Assembly (NCBI GenBank): GCA_007922305.1
Contig: ML677386.1
Location: 8,020,679 to 8,084,678 of the forward strand
Direction of reading: 5' to 3'
Length of the DNA: 64,000 bases
DNA from: Dermatemys mawii
Lineage: Eukaryota; Chordata; Testudines; Dermatemydidae
The position numbers and the translations under genes are program-made. Every line of letters begins with the position of its first letter. Within the stretch, counting starts at the first letter, position 1. This document shows, one piece after another, positions 26,464 through 40,695 of this stretch. Below the pieces are notes generated by a model that had not been told where the DNA came from, searched no databases, and saw only the letters and a list, made by a program, of their open reading frames with translations.

Positions 26464-28200
26464 TACTCAACACGGTGAATTCATAATAGCAGCAGAGTCT
26501 CTATGCCAATAAATATTTCTGTGCTCACTCACTTCATGATGTGCAATATCAGCCAGTCACATAATACAGGGGTGTGACGGCGGGGAGGTGGATAATTTAT
26601 GACTTTCCAATAAAGTCTCACGTGCAGTGTGATTGTGCTGTTCCTTCTCTGGAGCCTTGCAGCTGTCATTGTACAAGAAGTGTTCTCCAGCACACCTGCG
26701 GTGTATGATGGGAGAAGAAGTGGGGAGAGGCAGTCTCTCTGGTATCTGGAAGAGGCTTTATGTCGAAACGATCAAGTAAGTGAGGGCAAGTGTATCAGGC
26801 CTGATGATGTCACTAATAGCATTGCCTCCAAGGGAGCAATTAATTGACATTGTCAGTGGATCAGAGAAAACGAGTGTTGGCATTAGAGAGAGAGAGAGAG
26901 GAGTTCTTTTGTTCCTGGAAATTCAATTACAGGGGTTGCTGTAAAGACCTTTTTAATACATCACTGTTCTGCGCATTACAGATTTTGTGCCATATAGCTT
27001 GTTCTTTAAGAAAAAACAACAAAAAAGACTCTTGGGCATCATCACATAGGTCTCAGTGTCGTCTCTGCTCCCCAGAAAGTTGCTTTGTTAATGGCTTCAT
27101 TGGTCTAGGCCTTTGTTCAGTTCAATATGCCATTTTGTACCAGTCCACACTATTTCAATGGTTTGGTGCTTCAGCTATGGGGCATAGTTATCCAGCCATC
27201 ACACTGAGTTATGCCTTATTTTAGTCATTTGGAACCAAGTAGTTTATTTTCTAAGTTTCAAACTTTCTAACCTAAGAACTGCCAGCAACACACAAGAAGG
27301 CCAAAGCTCTGATATAGTGACAAATTCAAGCAAGGGCAGGCCCCAAGAAATTCAGTGGTCCCACTGACAACTGGGAAAATCCTGCTCACAAATTGCTCAG
27401 TTTGGAGAAGTCAGGTGAAGGCTGGTGGAGAGCCATCAGAGAGTTCAGGCTGAGGCCCAGAGGTGAGCCAGGAAGCAGAATGTTCTCCAACTTCCATCTG
27501 GTGAGTGGACCTGTAGCCACTGTGGGCAGGTTTGCCGCTCACGCTTCAGGCTCTTTTCCTGTACCATTGGTAAGCACCACTGACAGACCAGCTTTGTCAC
27601 GTTTCTTTTCATCTGTCAAGATGTTGGACAGTCATATATTTAATGTATAAATTGGTGTCATGAAGCCATGGGATCATGTCTCCAGAACAGTAAAGAGAAG
27701 AAATTAGAATGTCAATAAGCCAGAAAATAATCTCATCCTGTTATCGCTCAGATAGTCACTAACTGCACCACATGCCAAAGTTAATACAGAAACAAAAATA
27801 CCCGATCTGTAACAGAGCAAAAGTTTCCCATGATACAAAAGGAACAATGAATGTTTATATTCCAGACAGACAGACCTCTAATTATTTATTAAAGCTGTAT
27901 GTTAGGCAAAGTTTCAAAAAGGAAACTTATTTCGGAGGGAAGGGAAGCAGGAACTGTTGCCTTTTTCAATGTTTTTCACATTCCCTCCCTCACACTTCAA
28001 GATTGTTACTGAAAACAATAAAACAATGTCTGAACTGCTATTGAAACAGTTCCATTTAGTTTTCATAAACGTTTTTGATTTTTTTAAATGTAGTGAATAA
28101 TTTTTTTAAAAGTAGATTAGTTCTGACCCTTGAATAAAATGGAAACCACTTTGAAATGTTCAATGTTGCAATTAAAAACAAAAAGTCCTATAAAGATGTA
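26464..28200. other. Unassigned
   Basis: No repeat family or gene recognised. There is a short AG run at 26887-26902. Frames at 26629-27224 and 27393-27650 have no domain. Confidence 0.35.
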
Positions 28201-28785
28201 TGCCTTCCCTGTAGAGCTCCCTTCTAGTCAAGCATTGCTCAGCAACATCCTACCTCAGTTTCTCTTCTTGGACTCCTTAAAAACTTAACAAAGGCTTTTC
28301 CTCTTCCAGGAATACCCAGGTTTCTAAACTTCTCAGATTCCAAATTTCATCAGTCCCAGCTCTGTCTGTTTGGAGTCGTCTTCTCCCCCGGAATTTGCTC
28401 TCAGTTCCAGTATCCAACTCTTCTCTCCTCCTTGGAGATAGAGTTATTTAGGCCAACTGTAGAGCCTCAGACAGCTTCTTCTCCAGCTGGCTCTATACAG
28501 ACTTCTTCCCAAAGCTTATCTCAATTGGATGAGAGAGAAGGGAGCCTTGCCCCAGCTACTCTGTAAGATTCCTGGTCCCTGGCCTGTAAAGAAACAGCAG
28601 CCTGGGTTTTCCCCAAGTCTTAATTATTCCCCTGGGACATCTTCCTGGCTCCCAGCACCTAGCTCTGCCTACTCTAGGTGTTCACCTGCTCTAGAAGTCC
28701 CAAGACTTAAAGCGACACAGCACAGAACAGATGTTCACTGACCTCTCTTCCTTACTACCCTTAATGGGACAGTCACCCTGCTACA
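28201..28785 (-). mobile_element. Gypsy-type LTR (minus orientation)
   Basis: On the minus strand it begins TGTAGCAGGGTGACTGTCCC, preceded directly by a purine-rich tract (GAGAGGGGAGG at about 28788-28798). That is the arrangement of polypurine tract then 3' LTR. The low-coordinate end is approximate. The plus-strand frame 28529-28741 is incidental. Confidence 0.6.
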
Positions 28786-29190
28786 TACCTCCCCTCTCAG
28801 AGCCTTCCTGTGCCAAAAAGTAGTCTCTTCTGGGCAGCTTTTAGTCAAATTCTCCAACTAAGTGGATGCTTCTTCCACTGACACCAAATGGTCTAGTAAA
28901 TCTTTGTCAATAGCCTTGATTTTGCTTCTTATAAACTGTGTGACCAAAGTTTGGAAAGCCCTATGTCAGATGCACTTTATACGACTCATGTTGTCCTGAA
29001 GAGCTCAGCATTTGTAACATGTTAGACATTGTGAATGTCTAGCTCAGGGGCTATTGTGAAGTAATGAAAATCCGGCTGTTACCCTGCTTAAGTTTCTGGA
29101 ATGCTGTTTCACAATCATTTGCAGAAGAGCACCCATGAATATACACACATGCACCCCCTTTAGTGTGAAGGTCGTCTAACATACGGTCAC
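28786..29190 (-). pseudogene. Ty3/gypsy pol remnant upstream of the LTR
   Basis: Minus-strand frames near 29160-29030 contain CETAFQKLKQ and then (shifted) FTIAPELDI. They resemble the RT-to-RNase H connection of gypsy elements, where an aromatic plus 'AFQELK' is followed by 'AP.L'. Stops and shifts break it everywhere. It lies directly next to the polypurine tract and LTR at 28785, which supports the identification. Confidence 0.5.
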
Positions 29191-29197
29191 TTTCATA

Positions 29198-29330
29198 GAT
29201 TCATGAATTTTAAGGCCAGAAGAGACCATTATGATCATCTAGTCTGACCTCCTGTATAAACACTGGCCATAGAATTTTACCCAGAAATTCCTGCATCAGG
29301 CTCATGTATGAGGGGGGGTGAATGGGTTGG
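29198..29330 (-). mobile_element. CR1 3' end fragment
   Basis: CATAGATTCATGAATTTTAA, GGCCAGAAGAGACCATTATG and ATCATCTAGTCTGACCTCCT form the reverse complement of a CR1 subfamily tail. Same subfamily as 17575-18045 and 36881-37135. Confidence 0.9.
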
Positions 29331-29575
29331 AAACATGCTCCTTTCCAGGTAAAGAGATTTTTGACTGCAAACCAAACATGGAAACTCAGGTTTCAAGCTA
29401 GCATTGGTTGAGTGACCAGCCAATGTTTGACATCCCGTGTGAAATCAGAGGGTGATTTTAACAAACTTGAGTCCTTACCACAACCTCCATAGCCATCTAC
29501 ACTCCTGTTGGTAGTCTCAGCAGAGCAGTCAAGCAATGAATAGGCCTGGAGAACCAACTTCCTTCTCACACTTTA

Positions 29576-29855
29576 GGCTATGTCTACATCATGTTGGATT
29601 AATTTATGTAGATCAGGGTGTGGAAAAAACCACACCCCTGAGAGACATAAATTACACCAACAGAAGCGCTGGTGTGGACAGTGCTATGTTGGTGGCAGAA
29701 CCTCTCCGGCCGACATGGATTCTGCCGCTTGTTGGAGGTGGTTTAATTATGTGGACGCTGGAGAAGAAAGCCCTCTCCAATCAGCACTGAGTGGCTACTC
29801 AAGATACCTTACAGCAACACAGTTGCCTAAGAAGTGGTCAGTCCTTCCAGCTCGG
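29576..29855. repeat. 'GGCTATGTCTACA' MITE, right end missing
   Basis: Starts after TTA with GGCTATGTCTACATCATG. It continues with GGTGTGGAAAAAACCACACC (internal palindrome), GAGAGACATAAATTACACCA and GCTGGTGTGGACAGTGCTAT. The expected mirrored TGTAGACATAGCC end is absent. A related copy is at 53998-54310. Confidence 0.7.
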
Positions 29856-30960
29856 GTTTGCAGCATTGTAGTGGTGTGATTTGGGAAAGTTTATGTTGCT
29901 ACTGTCCATGCCGTACCTGTTCTGTGACTAAAGAGGACATCTGGATCCAAGACTGTTAGTCTGACATTTCTCATGAGCACCATCACAAAAATAGACCAGG
30001 AGTTGTTTATTTACAGATGAGATGATTTAAACAACGCAGAGGAGAGAGGAGGTGCAGAAGGCTGGGGCACTAACAACCTCACGCTGGATAAGTCAAACAA
30101 AGCAGTCCAACTAAAGAGAGCAAAGCAGAAAGGTAGTGAGCACTTTGAGTAACAGAGTGTCCAGAGCAGTATTAGCAGTTGTGGCCATTTCTTCCCCTTT
30201 GTAAATGAGACCATTTTCATGAGATCTACCATGCAATTTTTTCTGCAGAGGGTAAAATATCTTACAGTCATGCCAGGCATTCAATAATGAGATGAACAGG
30301 GCCAGATGGAAAGATGAATTTTCTCCCTAGCATCCAAGAGAGTGGGTTGATGTGGTTACAAGTGGAGATGGGGCTGAGTTGCAAAGTAAGGATCTGGATT
30401 CAAATTATTTGTTGCTGGGGGGGTTGGACCCTCCTGTTTACATAGACACTTTAGCATAAAGAAAATCAAAAGTGTGCCTGCCTTGAGGAAGGACACCTGT
30501 CCTCAGGGTGAATATATATCTTCTGTGAAGATGTTTAATACTTTGACACCAGGGATGAGACCCTACATGCTCAAGGCACGTTAAAATACAGAAGTCTATA
30601 CTTGTCATGACAACAGCCCCCTCCTACAAGCACCCAACACCATCATGTCAGACCAAACCTCCCACTTTGCAACCCTGCCCACTACCACCACCTATGAAAA
30701 GAGCCCTGTTCCATTTCTGCTGCTAGGCCTTCCTTCCATTCACCTATGATGTGCCCAAACTGATCTGGCTTCCCACCAGCAAAAAAATCCTGTCTTTTCC
30801 ACTTAATTTCCCTGATTCCTAGCAAATGTATAGCCCTGCCTCTATTGCACATATTCTTTCTGTTATGTTCATGGCACAGACAGAGAGAAAATAGACACAC
30901 AGAGATACATGTACATTGCAGCCTTCCAGCAAGAGTATCACTATGCGTCAGTTCTTTAAC
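29856..30960. other. Unassigned
   Basis: No repeat or domain recognised; frames such as minus 30682-30972 are not similar to anything I know. Confidence 0.35.
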
Positions 30961-31502
30961 TGCTGAGGGCACCTCCTACTGTCTGAAAATTCCTTCGGGT
31001 GCCCCCATCTGCCTAAGCAGGTGTCTCTGTGATACAAAAATCAGGTCAACTATTCTGACAGTGTTTTGAAAGGGGTGGGGCTCCTGACTCTCACTCCTCT
31101 AGTTCCTTTAGTATAGTCCCAGTTTGCCTAACCCTGAAAGGGGTCGAAGATAGCAGTGCCAGCCACCTAACAGCTCATCTTGGGGCTTGTCAAACCTCTC
31201 CTACCCAGCTGATATACCAAAAATCTACTGCTCCACTGTGGGCACGGGTGAGTCGGGGGAACAGGGAAATCAGTGAATGGCCTTCCTGGGGCCAGTTCCC
31301 CTGGGAGTCTCTTCTGGAATCTGGAAAGCTGCTGTCTGCTCTCCTCCAGAGCTGCTCAGCAACTGTCTGAAACTGCCTGCTTTTAAGCCCTTATTCCACC
31401 TCTGACAGGAGGACTGACAGGCACAGAGGGGTTAGGCCAGCCTTGACCCCAGCATCTCTTTAACCCTTCACCACCACTGTAGGATTTATATACTCTGTCA
31501 CA
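30961..31502 (-). repeat. 3' LTR of the Gmr1-like element, 542 bp
   Basis: Minus-strand start TGTGACAGAGTATATAAATC and plus-strand low end TGCTGAGGGC. It shares CAGCCACCTAACAGCTC, ACCCAGCTG, GAAATCAGTGAA, TGGCCTTCC and CTGCTTTTAAGCCCTTATTC with the copy at 34712-35870. TATATAAAT near its 5' end may be an old promoter element. Confidence 0.85.
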
Positions 31503-31516
31503 CACCCTTCCTGTCA
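31503..31516 (-). other. Polypurine tract
   Basis: Minus-strand GACAGGAAGGGTG abuts the LTR start TGTGACAG, as expected for plus-strand priming of reverse transcription. Confidence 0.7.
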
Positions 31517-31544
31517 GGATTGGGGTAAGGGTGTTACAGTTGGC

Positions 31545-32510
31545 TGCATTTTGGTGAGCTTTTCCAGCTGGATGAAAGCTTGGAGACTATATGAGTATAA
31601 TAACAAATACCAACACATTATCTGGGGATTGGTCTCCTACACTTTGTTCAACCATCGGAGTGGTGCATGGTCTGTAATTAACAAAAAGGGGTTGCGATAT
31701 GCGGTGAACCCGGGGACAAAACATCAGTAGTATGTGACCAATCCTAGGAATCATCACGCTTGCTTTTTCATCACAGGGACAGGGCAGCTCATCAAAATGG
31801 GGACTTTTCCCACCCAGTGTTGCGTCTGGCCACGTACTATTGCATACCCCAGGTACATGGCTTCATTGTTCCTGATCTTGCATTTCACCAAATGGCAGTC
31901 AACTCTGTCTCCATGAGGGACTGAAGTACCACTGCTACCTGTTTCAGGCTGTCCCCCCAATTCTGGCTATAGATGAGAATGTCCTGATAGGCCGTGGCAT
32001 CCTGTCAATGGGGTTGCAAGATTTTTATCTATCAACCTCTGGAAGGTAACAGATGCACCATAGAGCCCGAATGGTATGGTATAGAACCAGTACAAACCAA
32101 ATGGTACGGAGAAACCCATCTTTTCCCTGCAGTCTGGTGTAAGAGGGATCTGACAGTACCCTTTGATAAGGACACTGGTAGATATCATCTCTGATCCCCG
32201 TAACCACTCCAGTAATATGGGATAGGCATAAAATTTAGATATTGCCTTGACTTTGTGGAAACCTATTCACCATTCTGCCCAGCTCAGAGACCAGGGCAAT
32301 GGGGCTCCTCCATTTACGTTAGCACACCTTCCAGGTCAAACATTGCTTGAAGCTCTGAACTAGGTCCTACATTTTTGGGGGCAGAGGATAAGGGTTTTCC
32401 CTCACTTTTTGTCCTGAAGCTGTTTTAATATGAGGAGAGATCAAATGTAGCTTTCCTGGAGTAGATGAGAACACTATGAGGAACAGGTTGCTGGACTTGT
32501 CCGTTGTTCA
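31545..32510 (-). pseudogene. Gypsy RT and RNase H remnant
   Basis: RT motifs on the minus strand: LIKGYCQIPLTPDCREKMGF, VPFGLYWFYTIPFGLYGA and TFQRLIDK (32188-31990). Then AYQDILIYSQNW replaces the YLDD-type active site, so it is degraded. Upstream near 32290 is the RSPIAL segment. At 31690-31640 ITDHAPLRWLN marks the C-terminal part of RNase H. The part of RNase H between the RT thumb (31740) and this motif is deleted. Frameshifts and stops are frequent. Confidence 0.85.
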
Positions 32511-32599
32511 GGTTGTAAGGTTTTCTCCATCTTTACAGACTTGCAGGTTTATCAGACAGGGCCTGAGTTTGGATATGGGGGTAGGGTTCAATAAAAAGC

Positions 32600-33115
32600 C
32601 CCTCCCAGGACTTTAGAGGGTTTATATGATACCTCTGGATTTGTCCTTTTCCCTAAGAGCAGGATTTCATAATCAACAGGGCCCACCTTTTTAACCACCT
32701 TGAAGGGCCCTTGCCAGAGGGCCAACAGTTTAGACTCTGTAGCAGTAACAATACCCAACCACATGGCTTAAACACTCTCAATCAAGCTCTTTAGTTATAG
32801 GGCATCTCTTGTTTGCGTTGAGCCTGCAGAGGTTTCTCTCTGGCAAACGCTTCCAGTGCTTTAAGTCGTGTCCATAACCAGAGGGCATGTTGGAACATGT
32901 TGAACCCTTGAGGACCCTGTTCTTCTCAGGACTCTCAGAACAGTTCTAGAACACTGTAGGATTGTCTTCCATGTAAGAGCTCAAAAGGTGAAAAGCTCAT
33001 GGAGAACTGAGGGACTTCCCAGATGGTGAATAGCAGGGAAGAGAGTAGTTGGTCCCAATATTTGGGGTCTGTGATCACAAATTTTCCTAAACATTTCTTT
33101 TAAAGCTTTATTAAA
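32600..33115 (-). pseudogene. Gypsy integrase remnant (second half)
   Basis: Minus-strand pieces: ALKEMFRKF (33105), YWDQLLSSLLFTIWEVPQ, FSPFELLHGRQ, and then WQGPFKVVKKVGPVDYEI (32717-32660), the GPF-type C-terminal module of gypsy integrases. The zinc-binding N-terminus and the first catalytic residues are missing. It lies 5' of RT in the element, which is the unusual feature. Confidence 0.85.
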
Positions 33116-33179
33116 AGATATACTAGACTCTCTGTTTGCAGATGATAGACTGATGTTCACAGTGTCTTAACTTTCATAA

Positions 33180-34640
33180 GCTGCGTAGTTCCTTCACCAA
33201 CCAAGATACCACCGTCTCTGAATAACATTTTAACACCCTGGCCCGTCTGCCAGCAGATAGGAGGTGCATGAACTGTTCCACAACACAATTTTAGCTACTT
33301 GAACCCTTGTCCTGGCTCCCGGCTTTAGCCAGTGGCAGCAATGGTCCCTTAACCACTGAACTACCACTTGGGATCATGTTCCTAGGGAATATTTCCCTTC
33401 TCTAAAGTGCAGATGGTGGGTTTCCTCTGTAATAGCTACATATTCAAAGGGCAGCCATTTTGACTTTCAAGTAGTCCTGTGTGGCCATCGCATCCATTTC
33501 TCCATACACTGCCGGGGCTAGTCCAAGGAGGAAAGGGGCCAGCAGCGTGGCCTAGCATTCCTGTACCACGAGGCTGCCTCAGCCATCCATTCGCATGTGA
33601 ATAAGGAAGGACTCAAGATCATCATTTGGGCCTGTAGTGGGGCAACTGCCCCACTCCATGGAAAAGGGGCTTAAAACAGCCAAGGAAAGGCTTGTGGCTG
33701 GGGGCAAGCAGCTCCCAGGCTGATTGCAATAGCAGCCACAGCTGTGGCTGGGTCAATCAGGGCCCAGCTGGCCCTGATAAAAAGGGCCCAGAGTCTGGTG
33801 CAGAGAGTCTCCTTCTCTAGCTGAGGAGGCAGACTGGCCTGGCTGCTGGGAGCTTGATAAGGTACCTAGAGTGGTGCAGGGCTGGGCAAGGCAACGGGAG
33901 CTCTGGCCTGGAAACCCTCAGACTGCAGGGCCTAGGAGATGGTCCAACAAGGGGTACTGGGGTTGCAAGCGGCAGCCCATGGGTAGTAGCGGAAGCAGCA
34001 GGCCAACCCTCCTTGCCAGTGATGAATGGCAATGATACTGCAGTCTGCCTCAGAGAATGGGGGCAAGTGGTGACTGGCAGTTGCCTAGACTGAGGCAAGG
34101 TGGGGATAGGAGGTGGGGGTTCCCCAGGGAGGGGAGACCCAGAGTGAGACTGTGGGGGTACTACAGGGGTGCAGCACCCCAGGGAAGAGGGTACCAGGGT
34201 CCGGGAGGGACACGGGGCCAGTAGCAAACGGGACTACGGCCTGCAGAGGGCGCTGCGGACTCTGGAAGAGCTAATTCCCTGACAGACCAGCGGGAGGTGC
34301 TGCAGGGTGAGTCGCCGCTCTGCTACAGGGCCCATTTTTGCCAACTTCACCGACGACAAAAGCTTTCATCCTCGGACTTGTTGGCACCCCCACTGCCACA
34401 CTGCTTGGCTTGAAAAAACAACATTTGTTGGACCTGCTGTTGTGGGTCTTGCTGTCGTGCCGTTATTTCCCTTAGCAGCTCTTGCTACTATGGCACCTGC
34501 TGCTGCGGCTGCATAGCTAATTGTTGTAGCAGCTGCTGTGTGGCTTGTTGCTGCTGGCTTTCTGTCAGCCATTTCAAGCAGCCTATCCAAGTCCATCTTG
34601 CTTAGACAGCCCACACGTGTAAGTAACTTTCTCTCACACA
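33180..34640 (-). pseudogene. Gypsy gag remnant, interrupted by a solo LTR
   Basis: N-terminus at 34611-34560 (SKMDLDRLLEMADRKPAA) is followed by an alanine-rich stretch coming from a Q/A-rich region. After the solo LTR (33633-34327) the frame continues on the other side with DDLE and MDAMATQDYLKVKMAAL. QVVVQWLRDHCCHWLKPG and VQVAKIVL (33400-33270) are capsid-like alpha-helical gag motifs. Protease and zinc knuckle are not seen. The plus-strand GCTGCTGC-rich frames are artefacts of the alanine-rich part. Confidence 0.75.
33633..34327 (+). mobile_element. Solo LTR inside gag, 695 bp, 5-bp target duplication
   Basis: Starts TGTAGTGGGGCAACTGCCCC and ends GTCGCCGCTCTGCTACA. GGGCC flanks it on both sides (33628-33632, 34328-34332). 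ATAAAAAG at 33777-33784 is a likely promoter box. G-rich sequence gives artefactual frames (33817-34227). The gag reading resumes across the insertion, so the pre-insertion site is clear. Confidence 0.9.
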
Positions 34641-34927
34641 CACACAGCTCATCTTACCTCAGGGGTGATCTCAGGCCTGCATTCTCCACAAATTTGTCAC
34701 AGATCTCGGGCTGCTGAGGGGAACCTCTTGCTGTCTGGACACTGAAAAATCCTTAGGGTGCACACATCTGCCTTAGCTATGAAACAAAATGGCCAAATAG
34801 TCCAACAGTGTTTGAAGAGAGTGGGGCTCCTGGCTCCCACTTCCTCAGTCCCTTTCATGGACTCCCTACCCCTACTCAAAGGGGTAGAGGGTCACAGTAC
34901 CAGCCACCTAACAGCTCCTCTTAGGAC

Positions 34928-35559
34928 TGTTGGGGTTCCCCCAGGATCCCTTCCACTTGGTTTCCCAAAAACTCAGTTCAGCTCCAATCTCATCACTCAG
35001 GTGCCTTTATTTGGCATACGGCAAAGCTAGGCTGAGTTGATCAGACTCAAACACAACGGATGGATGCAGGGTACATCACAGATCCAAAGACATACAACAA
35101 ATCTTTTTCTTATCTACCTTTCTACCCACGCTAGTTCCTAACGATACATTACATCATGCACTTCATGACAGGCTTGATTACTCTTCAGGAACCAATCCCT
35201 GTGCAGCCTACTTGGTCCATGTATAAGCTGATTTCTGCCTTATCTACCCTTAGGCTTGTTTACTAATATCAGGATGTTCCTGCTTATCTTAACTAGCCAC
35301 TCCAGCATACTGCTTGCTATGACTATTTAACCTTCCACTCACCTTCCCAGTCATGCAGAAGCAACAAAGAGTCCTGTGGCACCTTAAAGACTAACAATAG
35401 TCTTTAAGTCTTTATTAGTCTTTAAGGTGCCACAGGACTCTTTGTTGCTTTTGCAAATCCAGACTAACACGGCTGCCCCTCTGATTCTTCCCAGTCATGT
35501 TCACTAAGCAATTAAGCGAGTTACTTATGTCAAGTTATTTAAATTAAGCCAAGGCTACA
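34928..35559 (-). mobile_element. Solo LTR inside the 5' LTR
   Basis: Plus-strand ends are TGTTGGGGTTCCCCCAGG and AGCCAAGGCTACA. Flanks AGGAC and AGGGC form a 5-bp duplication with one mismatch, and the 3' LTR shows the uninterrupted sequence. A polyA signal on the minus strand (TTTATT at about 35005) suggests minus orientation. It contains the Penelope-derived hairpin. Confidence 0.8.
35356..35487. mobile_element. Penelope-like inverted-repeat insertion with 12-bp target duplication
   Basis: Two inverted copies of AACAAAGAGTCCTGTGGCAC (plus CTTAAAGACTAA) face each other around a short spacer, followed by CCAGACTAACACGGCTGCCC. TTCCCAGTCATG flanks it at 35344-35355 and 35488-35499. The arms are a fragment I associate with turtle Penelope-like elements. 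Inverted-arm insertions are typical of that class. Confidence 0.75.
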
Positions 35560-35870
35560 AGGGCTTGAGGAACCTATTCTACCCAGCTGGTATAAAGGAG
35601 GGGTCTGTTGTCTCCCTGAGGGTACTGGAGTAGGGATTGGGGAGGAGGAGGGGAGAAATCAGTGAACGGCCTTCCTGAAGGCTTCCAGGAGTCTCTCTTG
35701 GGCCACTGTCTGCTCTCTTCCAGAGCTGTTCAGCAAGTATATGGAATGTCCTGCTTTTAAGCCCTTATTCCACCACTGACATAAATGACTGGCTGAGTGG
35801 GAAGTGGCCAGCCTTGCCCACAGTAGCTCTTTCAGCCCCTCATCACCATTGCCAGGTTTATACAGCCAAT

Positions 35871-36880
35871 TACCCACCACTTCATTTCTTAGAATCCAGA
35901 ACGATAACAAAGAAGAATGCAAAAACACAGAAATGCTCCCTAAGGCAACAAGGCACAACTTACCCCACCTTACTTTAAACTGGCTCTTTCCAGAATGACT
36001 CTGCTCTCATGTTTTATTACAGCTCCAGCCTGCAAGGAGGACCAGGAAAAAACCCTGCTTTTAAAGTTATAGCTTGCAATTCCAACACAGTCCTTAGTAC
36101 AGTACACTTAACCATGACGCTACTTCTCCATCCCTGCCCACAGTCTGGTTATGGCACCCACTCCCTTCCCACACACAATTGCAGTCTTGACTTCTTTCCA
36201 TCCCAGCTACTGAGACCTCCTGCAGACAAAATACTCCCATACAGGCGGGCATTCACTCTATACTGGCACACACTTTATCCAACCCTAATAAAATAAATAA
36301 TAATAATCCTGATCTACCACTGTGGCATATTGTGGTGTTCACAGTTTGGTTCTTACCCCAGCAGTGACTGCATTGTGCTGTAACTATACAGTTGTATGGC
36401 TTTTTATAAATATAACAATGTCATTTGATGGACCTTGGCACTATTTGTGTGCTGAGTGAGCCCAAGATTAGCATTCCTAGCATGACTCTGCTTTGCCATG
36501 GCCTTGTGAAGAGGGAACCTGATCAGTGTTTATGCATGAAAAGCCCCACTGATTACATCTCACTTCAAGTTATTTTGCAACAATGGACTCCCGGCATTCC
36601 TACTTGCATGATGTAGAAGGCTCTGTGTCTATCATGCTGCCACAGAATCTGTGATTTCTCCTGTTTAAAACAGCTGCTGATCAAACACCCTTAGCTGAGC
36701 TCCTCTAGTGCCAAAGAGAGAAAAACATAACAGCTTGCGGAAGCACACGAGCAAGCTTTTCTCAATCATACGTCACAACGGATATGGCACATAGTAAGTG
36801 CAAGTGCAATTGATTGCTGGGAGTGGCCTATTAAAGTCCAACCCCTGAGCAGAGTTGAGGCATGGCGGAGGAACAAGACT
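35871..36880. other. Unassigned
   Basis: No repeat or domain recognised. An AATAAAATAAATAATAATAA run is at about 36286-36306. Confidence 0.35.
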
Positions 36881-37135
36881 CATAGACTTTAAGGTCAGAA
36901 GGGACCATTATGATCACCTAGTCTGACCTCCTGCACAATGCAGACCACTGAATCCCACCCATCAACTGCTATAATAAACCTCTCACCTATGTCTGCGCTA
37001 ATGACGTCCTCAAATCATGGTTTAAAGATTTCAATGTGCAGAGAATCCTCCAGCAAGTGAATCATGCCCCATGCTGCAGAGGAAGGAGAGATGAATATGG
37101 CAAATTATGTCCATGCCAACCTGTTGGGAGCCAAG
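36881..37135 (-). mobile_element. CR1 3' end fragment
   Basis: TCATAGACTTTAAGGTCAGA, AGGGACCATTATGATCACCT and AGTCTGACCTCCTGCACAAT mark the reverse complement of the CR1 tail. The match continues with TCCTCCAGCAAGTGA, then CCCATGCTGCAGAGGAAGG. Confidence 0.9.
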
Positions 37136-37502
37136 CCGGGGCTCTCTCCCCATTGATCCTTTTAGGAACCTTCTCTTTGCCATTTTCATTTCCTGTTTGC
37201 TCCCTCCCTTAACAGCCTTTTCTGATTTAACTCCTGGCAGTCAGGGAGCTTAATATCAAACAGCTGACCTGAGAGGCATATGATACTCATAAAATAAATA
37301 CTCCATGTAACACCTTCATCCTCCACAGCATCCCTTCTGGATCCAGTAGTGGGCTGATACATAGCAAAGCACTGTCTCTCTCAGGAGGAGAGTTCTGAAT
37401 TGTATTTTATTACACTAGCTATAAAACTTTGGTTCTGGTTTTAGAGGTTTTTTGAGGGGGAGGTGGTTAGGGATTGTAATTTTGTGGACTAGAAGATGTC
37501 AA

Positions 37503-37640
37503 GTACAACAAGAGAATATAGGAATTGCCATACTTAATCAGACCAGTGATTCATTAGTTTAGTACCTGTCACCGACAGTATCTGTCCAATACGAGCTGTT
37601 TTAGAGATTGGTGCAAGATATCTTATGGAATAACATGTCC
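37503..37640 (+). repeat. Interspersed repeat, 'CCATACTGGGTCAGACCA' family, diverged
   Basis: GAATATAGGAATTGCCATAC followed by TTAATCAGACCAGTG and GTATCTGTCCAATACGAG follows the motif order of the clearer copy at 56435-56640. Confidence 0.55.
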
Positions 37641-37979
37641 ATTGGGGAGGTTTCTGCCTAAACTCCTCAGTTGCTGGGGACTTCAAGCGTTCAGGCAGAG
37701 ACATCAACTACAAGCAATGAGCAACAAGAGGTACTAAATTATAAATATCTCATGCAAAGGAATATCTAATGAATAATTATAACATAACTTATTTATATCA
37801 CACCACCTTTCATCCTGAATAATCCCAGAGTGCTGTACAACTCTGAAAAAAACTATAGCATCACTCAAATGCAGCCAAGTGCAGGCTAGAAGGCAGCAGC
37901 AGTTGTCATACAGTACATCATGAAACACTTTGAAAGGCGGATGGGGGGAATTTTGGTCAAAAACAGGGGTGGCTAGCAT

Positions 37980-38530
37980 CCACTGTTATCGTCCTACGCT
38001 ACTCCACATGGTGAGACCACAGATGGAGTATTGCATCCAGTTCTGGGCACCACACTTTAGGAAAGATATGGACAAATGTGTCCAGAGGAGAGCAACAAAA
38101 AAGATAAAAGGTTTAGAAAACCTAACCTATCACGAAAGGCTGAAAAACCTGGGCATATTTCATCTTGAAAAAAGAAGATTGAAGGGGGACCTGATAAGCG
38201 TCTTCAAATATGATTAGGACTGTTATAAGGGGGCAGTGATCATTTGTTCTCCATGTCCGCTCATGGTAGGCCAAGTAGTAATGGGCTTAATCTGCCACCA
38301 GGGAGATTTTGGTTAGATATTAGGAAAGACTTTCTAACTATAATGGTAGTTAAGCCCTGGAACAGGCTTCCAAAGGAGATTTTGGAATCCCCATCTCTCA
38401 AGGTGTTTAAGAAGAGGTTGGACAAACACCCTCAGGAATGGCCTAGGTTTATTTGGCCCTGCCTCAGTGCAGGGAGCTGGACTTGATGACCTCTTGAGGT
38501 CTCTTACAGGCATACACAATATGATTCTAT
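37980..38530 (+). mobile_element. CR1 LINE, 5'-truncated 3' end
   Basis: Two frames encode the CR1 C-terminus: MVRPQMEYCIQFWAPHF, LTYHERLKNLGIFHLEKRRL and KGDLISVFKY (up to 38217), then after a stop and shift FWLDIRKDFLT, NRLPKEILESPSLKVFKKRL (38290-38430). The 3' end reads GATGACCTCTTGAGGTCTC and finishes at CAATATGATTCTATAATA. A different CR1 subfamily from 6243. Confidence 0.95.
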
Positions 38531-38639
38531 AATAACGGTCCCGAGATCTTTACTATGCATGTCATTCGTAAAGCCTCATCAGAAAGACACGCTGAAGTTC
38601 ACAGAATTGAATCATACTACATCAGTGAGACAAAGAGCT

Positions 38640-38775
38640 GAGTCAATTCTCCAGAATGTGAGTGTAATGAATGCTCACACACAGACACTATGGTCATCTT
38701 GGGGGACTGAACCTGGGATCTTCAGCACCAAGAGCACAGACCCCTATCACTTAAGCTAAAGAAGAGCTCCTTTAG
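38640..38775 (-). mobile_element. tRNA-derived SINE
   Basis: On the minus strand, CTTTAGCTTAAGTGATAG resembles a pol III A box (TAGCTTAAGTG) and GGTTCAGTCCC, 35-40 bases later, is a B box. The distance fits a tRNA. It has no aminoacyl stem, so it is not a functional tRNA gene. Confidence 0.6.
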
Positions 38776-38840
38776 GAGTCAGAAAGTTGTAGTTTATCAG
38801 CCTCCTAGGCCAGATGCAAGACATGATCATATACATGAAG

Positions 38841-38961
38841 GCCCAAATCCTTCAACCAGGTCCACATAGGTAGGACCTTGATCCATGCCAAGCGCTATCA
38901 GTGCAATTCCATTTGGGACAAAGTGTCTGTCCAGGAAGATCCAGCTACAGGATCTGGGCCT
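38841..38961. repeat. Short palindromic MITE
   Basis: Inverted ends GGCCCAAATCCT and AGGATCTGGGCC, with ACATAGGTAGGACCTTGATC inside. Confidence 0.55.
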
Positions 38962-40695
38962 AAGTCAGTGTAAAAGTGTAGATATTTCAAAACTTACTTA
39001 TAGTAAGCTATTGTTCCAAATCTCATTATTAAAATAAAAACCACAATGAGGACAGATATCACGTTAAGCTATTTCAGTGAACTCTTACATTTTCAAAGTA
39101 CTTTACAACCCCATAAATGAGGAAAGAAGTCTTCACTGTGATGCCCTTATCATTCCTTTGGTACCAGCATAGTAAGATTTCAGGCTAGTACTAATCCAAG
39201 GGATAGTAAATTTGATCCTATTTGCTGGAGAGGCAGAAGCATACACATGATGAGAAACCCAAGTGTGGCTACAGTATTCAGATTCCTTGATGGAACAAAA
39301 TAGAACCATCTTATTTAAAAGAGAGCCATCCCATTTATCATTTAAAACTCAACTGAAAAACTATTAATTTATTGGAGTAAAGAAATCTATTTTGTCTTTT
39401 TTTTTAAAAAAAACAACTATGCAGTGCTTAATAGTCAGCATTTTACTCATCAAGGGAGACGTTCATCTCTGTGCAGAGAGCCACCTCAGGGCCTTGGCAC
39501 TGGGAAGAATTTCACCTGAAGATAATAGCAAGTTGAGGGAAATCGATGAGGCTATACCACATGTAACTGAAATATCTTTGGAACAGTACAATGTTGTGTT
39601 ATTGTTTTACATTTACCAGCCAGGGTAGGTTGTGACTGTTCAGTAGATTCTATGAAATGTGTCTGGTGGATTCAGTCAAGGTCCTAGTGGAATGTCTACA
39701 TCCAAATCCCTAGCCGCACCACCAGTCCTCCTTCATTAATTTGTTCCATCAACTATCATTTCAGCAAAGGATTAAATGGGCATTGACCTTCTCTCCCCTC
39801 CTAAACTTTGCCCCACCAGGTTTGAGCTACATGGGCAGGAGAGTGTGCTTGTTCTGAAGAGACAGGCCTTCAGTCTCCAAGACTGTGAATCCAGCAGCCT
39901 TCATAAGCACTAAAAAGAAAAAGACTATCAACCAAAAAACGGAGGGGGAGGAAAGATATGAGGTCTCTGGGGACATAATAGACAGTTATGATTTAATATA
40001 TTCTGTTAAAGATGGGCATGAGTAGGAGCAAGGTAGGATGGATTAATGACTAATTTGGCCAGATGCCAGAATAGGACAAAATAACCAGATACCTCCAGAT
40101 CAATTATCAAAGGACAGGCAGCTGGAATGAACTTACTGAGATCAGAAATCAATCATAAATTTCAATGTCAAATTGAAAAAGTCTAAGCTGACAAACATTA
40201 AGTCATAACTGAAACCCACAAAAGCAAATTAGGAAATTCAGTGGCAAAACTCCGCCAGAAAACCTTAACTCTTCATGTGAGCATACAGCATGCATTGCAA
40301 TAGGGCCTTTCATGATATGATCACGTAACACTGGGCAATGTGACAGTGAAGGAAAATATTTATTTTACAAATATGGGTTAACTACTGTAACTGGAGGCTC
40401 AGAAATATTTCAAACACTAATTGCAGTAAATTATCAGATTGCCCAGGAAAGCGGACATATGTGACTTTCTCAGAGCACTGGGAAGTGAGCCATATCACTA
40501 AAATATTTTTTTTTCAAACACATACATCAAAGAGGGAGACTGAATGCATTTATCACACAGGCATCAACTCCTCATAGACATCATACATACTAGCACTGGG
40601 CTGATTCGGAGAGATACTGCATACCCACACCCTCTTTAGCATCAACAGGAGTTGCAGGTGTCCAGCACCAAGCAAGCCTGATTCTGGTGGGTTAA
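38962..40695. other. Unassigned
   Basis: No repeat or domain recognised. A short frame at 39392-39628 shows nothing I know. A segment near 39085-39120 (TTCAAAGTACTTTACAAC) resembles SINE tails. Confidence 0.35.

What the first reader, a model, noticed from the sequence alone, without database searches (positions are those of the whole stretch)
30961..35870. Ty3/gypsy relic with integrase upstream of RT (Gmr1-like pol order)
Reading the minus strand: gag, integrase GPF module (32717-32660), RT (32188-31990), RNase H tail (31690-31640), polypurine tract, LTR. Standard gypsy has integrase after RNase H. The reversed order is the hallmark of Gmr1-like elements. Deletions cannot change the order of colinear domains on one strand, and the RNase H remnant abuts the LTR. 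If correct, this is a turtle-type Gmr1 relic retaining both LTRs.
Basis: partly seen in the sequence, partly recalled or inferred. Interest (0 to 1): 0.8.

Follow-up and report, generated by a model that had tools for sequence, protein, structure and literature searches.

The report
Decayed Gmr1-like LTR retrotransposon
This is the worn-out remains of an ancient jumping gene of a known but unusual kind (Gmr1-like, with the integrase placed before the reverse transcriptase), an ordinary genomic fossil that still carries a trace of a capsid region related to vertebrate SCAN domains.

Summary
On the minus strand, between two LTRs 80% identical, lie a gag piece, integrase C-terminus, reverse transcriptase, RNase H tail, purine tract and LTR. 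Pfam places the integrase tail (32767-32591, E 1.6e-5) upstream of RT (32266-31970, E 1.9e-3; Ty3 RT in PDB, E 1.5e-6). The RNase H tail (31723-31640) ends about 135 nt before the 3' LTR. Of 1,733 window pieces, the best match to each of six control domain segments lies here in this order, though integrase margins are thin; the three control elements have RT-RNase H-integrase. No LTR-like sequence was found at the integrase-RT junction. Reviews derive SCAN from Gmr1-like gag, so this is a second mark of the clade. The copy is dead: stops, frameshifts, deletions and three later insertions. An RT tree with Gmr1 references and the turtle host could not be tested. It is a new copy of a known kind, of low interest.

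The parts
35560..35872 (-). 5' LTR, first part (start uncertain by about 4 nt)
   Evidence: aligned to 3' LTR; blastn 70% over 323 columns, E 4e-32; ends read by hand
34928..35559 (-). 632-nt solo-LTR-like insertion (TG...CA) in the 5' LTR, flanked by GCCCT / GTCCT (4 of 5 match)
   Evidence: interrupts the LTR alignment; flanks; boundaries read by hand
35356..35486 (.). SINE-like insertion with a snapback of 44-nt arms, inside the solo-LTR-like insertion, flanked by a 13-nt direct repeat CATGACTGGGAAG
   Evidence: inverted repeat I1; flanks
34695..34927 (-). 5' LTR, second part, ending in CA
   Evidence: blastn 71% over 237 columns, E 5e-25
34328..34694 (-). leader and start of gag (by position only)
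   Evidence: the piece 34653-34369 gave no retroelement match, only an unrelated family at E 0.052
33633..34327 (.). 695-nt solo-LTR-like insertion (TG...CA) in gag with 5-nt target duplication GGCCC
   Evidence: flanks; boundaries read by hand; no other copy in the window
33233..33373 (-). gag capsid C-terminal piece, SCAN-like
   Evidence: PF02023 E 2.8e-3 (17.8 bits, below cut-off 27); PDB: 5 of 6 hits at E up to 10 are SCAN chains, best E 0.043
32938..33099 (-). integrase, C-terminal side of the catalytic core
   Evidence: best window piece against integrase end of L001; 1 of 200 and 3 of 200 shuffles reach it for L001 and L003; no Pfam or PDB match
32591..32767 (-). integrase C-terminal SH3/GPF module
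   Evidence: PF24626 and PF22938, E 1.6e-5 each; best window piece against integrase end of L003; no PDB match
31970..32266 (-). reverse transcriptase, fingers/palm
   Evidence: PF00078 E 1.9e-3; Ty3 RT E 1.5e-6; 0 of 200 shuffles for each of L001, L002, L003
31888..32004 (-). reverse transcriptase, following palm piece in another frame
   Evidence: L002 RT 390-417, 0 of 200 shuffles; 24 of 200 for L003; no Pfam match
31640..31723 (-). RNase H C-terminal piece
   Evidence: PF17917 E 0.067; 0 of 200 shuffles for L001 and L003; best of 1,733 window pieces for both; no PDB match
31505..31512 (-). short polypurine tract AGGAAGGG abutting the 3' LTR
   Evidence: sequence
30944..31504 (-). 3' LTR (TG...CA)
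   Evidence: ends read by hand

Best explanation
A long-dead insertion of a Gmr1-like Ty3/gypsy LTR retrotransposon with the order LTR-gag (SCAN-like capsid piece)-[nucleocapsid, protease and most of integrase not recognisable]-integrase tail-RT-RNase H-LTR. From general knowledge, intact elements of this kind copy themselves by reverse transcription of their RNA in Gag particles, and the integrase, here encoded in the middle of Pol instead of at its end, inserts the DNA copy. This copy has no intact gene. After insertion the LTRs diverged, internal stretches were lost, and two other elements (now solo-LTR-like) and a SINE-like element landed in it. Shown here: the order, the LTR pair, the SCAN-like piece, the insertions. 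Inferred: past mobility and clade membership.
For: Order of Pfam and PDB matches on one strand. The best of 1,733 window pieces for the integrase-end, RT and RNase H segments of two controls all lie here, in the changed order. Three control elements show RT-RNase H-integrase in Pfam. No LTR-like sequence at the integrase-RT junction (191 of 300 shuffles score as well; blastn). Paired LTRs. Gmr1 order and SCAN origin as reported in passages of PMC2774666, PMC8220671, PMC3424704, PMC4592553.
Against: The integrase core and RNase H pieces are weak singly (no Pfam match for the former, E 0.067 for the latter; neither found in PDB). The margins of the integrase pieces over unrelated window pieces are thin (47 against 44; 44 against 42). 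In one search the integrase tail's match to L001 fell outside integrase (15 of 200 shuffles) and the integrase core piece's match to L002 fell in RT (35 of 200). Two of the eight piece-control pairs that no shuffle reached there are apparently chance. The SCAN match is below Pfam's cut-off, and the next gag piece gave no SCAN match. No relative with integrase-RT order was found, but the collections searched are not vertebrate ones. No RT tree with Gmr1 was possible.
Confidence: 0.9

Rival explanations
1. A canonical-order gypsy element whose integrase tail lies upstream of RT only because two elements were fused (tandem or nested copies, or recombination) and the stretch between them was deleted.
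For: The copy is heavily deleted and has three later insertions, so rearrangement is plausible in principle.
Against: No LTR-like sequence between integrase and RT; RNase H, not integrase, is the last piece recognised before the 3' LTR; the two LTRs pair with each other; the SCAN-like gag mark points to Gmr1.
Confidence: 0.05
2. A non-Gmr1 Ty3/gypsy lineage that gained the integrase-first order independently.
For: RT grouping with Gmr1 was not tested; the copia-like order by itself is one character.
Against: The SCAN-like capsid piece is reported for Gmr1-like gag, so two characters agree.
Confidence: 0.04
3. A Ty1/copia element, which also has integrase before RT.
For: Same domain order (PMC2774666).
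Against: RT matches Ty3 and gypsy-type controls; of all Pfam models only RVT_1 matched the RT piece at E up to 1; the integrase tail matches the Tf2-1-type SH3 and p58 C-terminal models; gag is SCAN-like. No copia RT was compared directly.
Confidence: 0.01

Closest known systems
Gmr1-like Ty3/gypsy retrotransposons (Gmr1 of cod; Gmr1-4 of Tetraodontiformes; Gmr1-like of frogs)
   Same: Integrase upstream of RT; SCAN-related capsid piece; two LTRs of several hundred bases (3' LTR 561 nt here against 337-518 in the four Gmr consensuses of PMC11117352, Table 2).
   Different: Dead and about half deleted: about 2.5 kb internal sequence without the gag insertion, against whole consensuses of 6.1-6.5 kb in that table. 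RT phylogeny not tested.
Canonical Ty3/gypsy elements (Ty3; controls L001-L003)
   Same: RT, RNase H and integrase end related in sequence.
   Different: Integrase is C-terminal to RNase H in all three controls.
Vertebrate SCAN domain of zinc-finger proteins
   Same: Sequence match of one gag piece.
   Different: Here it sits between LTRs, upstream of pol, not joined to zinc fingers.

Membership tests
Gmr1-like Ty3/gypsy | Integrase encoded upstream of RT | tested here: met
Gmr1-like Ty3/gypsy | RNase H is the last Pol domain before the 3' LTR | tested here: met
   RNase H tail 31723-31640, LTR from 31504; a deleted downstream domain cannot be excluded by this alone
Gmr1-like Ty3/gypsy | Capsid C-terminal domain related to SCAN | tested here: met
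   PF02023 E 2.8e-3, below cut-off; 5 of 6 PDB hits SCAN, best E 0.043. The following gag piece gave no match
Gmr1-like Ty3/gypsy | RT, RNase H and integrase group with Gmr1 in trees | not testable with these tools
   no Gmr1 reference sequence reached; solved RTs found were Ty3 and 8r0s
Gmr1-like Ty3/gypsy | Protease with a TIHG motif (PMC2577118, passage) | not testable with these tools
   no protease match in the 24 pieces scanned; the region seems lost
LTR retrotransposon | Paired LTRs with TG...CA ends, purine tract, target duplication | tested here: inconclusive
   LTR pair and purine tract found; the 5' LTR start has no clear TG and the outer target duplication is not clear
Ty1/copia | Copia-type RT | tested here: not met
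   only RVT_1 matched in Pfam; RT matches Ty3; no copia RT compared directly

The most novel reading that the evidence does not exclude
The copy belongs to an amniote Gmr1-like lineage close to the one whose capsid gave rise to the tetrapod SCAN domain, so that its relatives in the same host would show the retrotransposon side of that domestication.
Probability: 0.2. Interest if true: 0.35.

Novelty: new member of a known kind. Interest (0 to 1): 0.2.

Why it matters
It is a further datum that Gmr1-like elements once lived in the host lineage, and the SCAN-like gag piece links it to the reported origin of SCAN domains. The order itself and the clade are known. In the held library I searched Gmr1 with turtle (13 papers), Gmr1-like with retrotransposon and reptile (two of three terms; 20 listed of 659), turtle with gypsy, LTR retrotransposon and integrase (16 papers), SCAN domain with gypsy and turtle (1 paper) and Gmr1 with lizard and retrotransposon (4 papers). 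By titles and abstract starts none is about Gmr1 elements of turtles; I opened only some of them, as passages. Most papers are not held, and two founding papers could not be read (Emerson and Thomas 2011; Goodwin and Poulter 2002). PMC11011659 searched painted turtle for metaviral capsids but built no model for SCAN (passages).

Tried and rejected
Protein search with the RT piece: one candidate, none scored. Viral-contig scans with the RT piece and with alignment A1 found no relative (8 and 63 pattern matches, none confirmed). Rfam and tRNA scans of the window: none. PDB searches with the integrase tail, integrase core, RNase H, second gag and later RT pieces: no match. Tandem repeats at 28000-39000: none. 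The host was not identified: a 15-base motif of the SINE-like insertion was found in no held paper. An RT tree was not built because no Gmr1 reference was at hand, so it could not have decided the question.

Full report
What is there. On the minus strand from about 35872 to 30944 lies a decayed LTR retrotransposon. The two LTRs align over 515 bases at 80.2% identity (56 transitions, 46 transversions, K2P 0.232). A blastn of the LTRs against the window finds, besides themselves, only each other. The 5' LTR is split by an insertion of 632 nt. The 3' LTR (31504-30944) follows a short purine tract. The ends were read by hand. The 5' end has no clear TG, and the outer target duplication is doubtful.

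Coding pieces. I scanned 24 distinct stop-to-stop pieces with Pfam (8, 8, 9, one of them a repeat). Four matched retroelement or SCAN families: integrase C-terminus 32767-32591 (two models, E 1.6e-5 each), RT 32266-31970 (E 1.9e-3), gag 33373-33233 against SCAN (E 2.8e-3), and RNase H 31723-31640 (E 0.067). None reached the curated cut-off. Four unrelated families gave E 0.052 to 0.22 in the same scans, so the RNase H value alone is at noise level. In PDB the RT piece found Ty3 (E 1.5e-6 and 6.1e-6) and 8r0s, named 'Enzymatic polyprotein' (E 5.9e-4; recalled to be a caulimovirus RT); the other 9 of 12 hits are unrelated. The gag piece found six chains at E up to 10, five of them SCAN domains (best E 0.043). 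The integrase tail, integrase core, RNase H, later RT and second gag pieces found nothing in PDB.

Order control. A scan of prokaryote genome contigs with a three-row RT alignment returned three contigs that look like eukaryotic gypsy elements in MAGs (49 stretches matched a pattern, 3 confirmed). In all three, Pfam puts RT before RNase H before the integrase core. I compared 95 pieces of 31508-34692, from both strands, with these three (285 pairs; only pairs scoring 32 or more were shuffled). The RT piece matched the RT of all three (0 of 200 shuffles each), the next palm piece that of L002 (0 of 200; 24 of 200 for L003), and the RNase H piece the RNase H of L001 and L003 (0 of 200 each). The integrase core piece matched just behind the integrase core of L001 (1 of 200) and L003 (3 of 200), and the integrase tail matched the integrase end of L003 (2 of 200). 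Against this reading, the integrase tail's best place in L001 was outside integrase (15 of 200) and the integrase core piece's best place in L002, whose contig ends soon after the integrase core, was in RT (35 of 200). Two further pairs with 0 of 200 look like chance: a plus-strand piece, and a piece that maps outside any matched domain of L003. Against 1,733 pieces of at least 25 residues from both strands of the whole window, the best match to each of six segments (integrase end, RT and RNase H of L001 and L003; segment limits set by me) lies in this element, on the minus strand, in the order integrase, RT, RNase H. For the integrase ends the margins over unrelated pieces are thin (47 against 44, and 44 against 42).

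Fusion rival. The order could in principle come from two fused elements. The integrase-RT linker shows no LTR likeness (191 of 300 shuffles score as high), nor do the gag-integrase, RT-RNase H and RNase H-LTR junctions (67, 94 and 107 of 300). RNase H, not integrase, is the last piece recognised before the 3' LTR.

What it is. Integrase upstream of RT is given in the literature as the mark of the Gmr1 lineage among Ty3/gypsy elements (passages of PMC2774666, and PMC8220671). The SCAN domain is reported to come from the C-terminal capsid of Gmr1-like gag (passages of PMC3424704; PMC4592553; PMC3406341). RT grouping could not be tested. Gmr1-like elements are reported from fish (PMC11117352), frogs (PMC4131045) and an annelid (PMC8220671). 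Their presence in reptiles is suggested by the statement that lizard SCAN zinc-finger proteins are predicted to bind Gmr1-like elements (PMC4592553).

State and history. No gene is intact. Nucleocapsid, protease, most of integrase and the stretch between RT and the RNase H tail gave no match in the pieces scanned and seem lost. Three later insertions are seen: a 695-nt solo-LTR-like element in gag with a 5-nt duplication GGCCC, a 632-nt solo-LTR-like element in the 5' LTR with a 4-of-5 duplication, and inside the latter a SINE-like snapback with a 13-nt duplication. The layering shows that the Gmr1-like copy is older than these.

Verdict. Observation confirmed; interpretation supported as to kind; host and RT phylogeny untested. 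It is a new copy of a known kind, of low general interest.

Noticed in passing
   Followed up: yes
34327-33633: 695-nt TG...CA insertion with 5-nt duplication GGCCC, looks like a solo LTR of another element; no other copy in the window.
   Followed up: partly
35559-34928 with 35486-35356 inside: Solo-LTR-like insertion that itself carries a SINE-like snapback insertion with a 13-nt direct repeat.
   Followed up: partly
29197-29259 and 36876-36938: Two copies of a 63-nt dispersed repeat, 86% identical, on either side of the element.
   Followed up: no
L001, L002, L003: Contigs filed under bacterial MAGs (Parachlamydia, Bacteroidetes, Rhodospirillales) that carry gypsy-type pol frames, L001 with a chromodomain; probably eukaryotic contamination.
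   Followed up: partly
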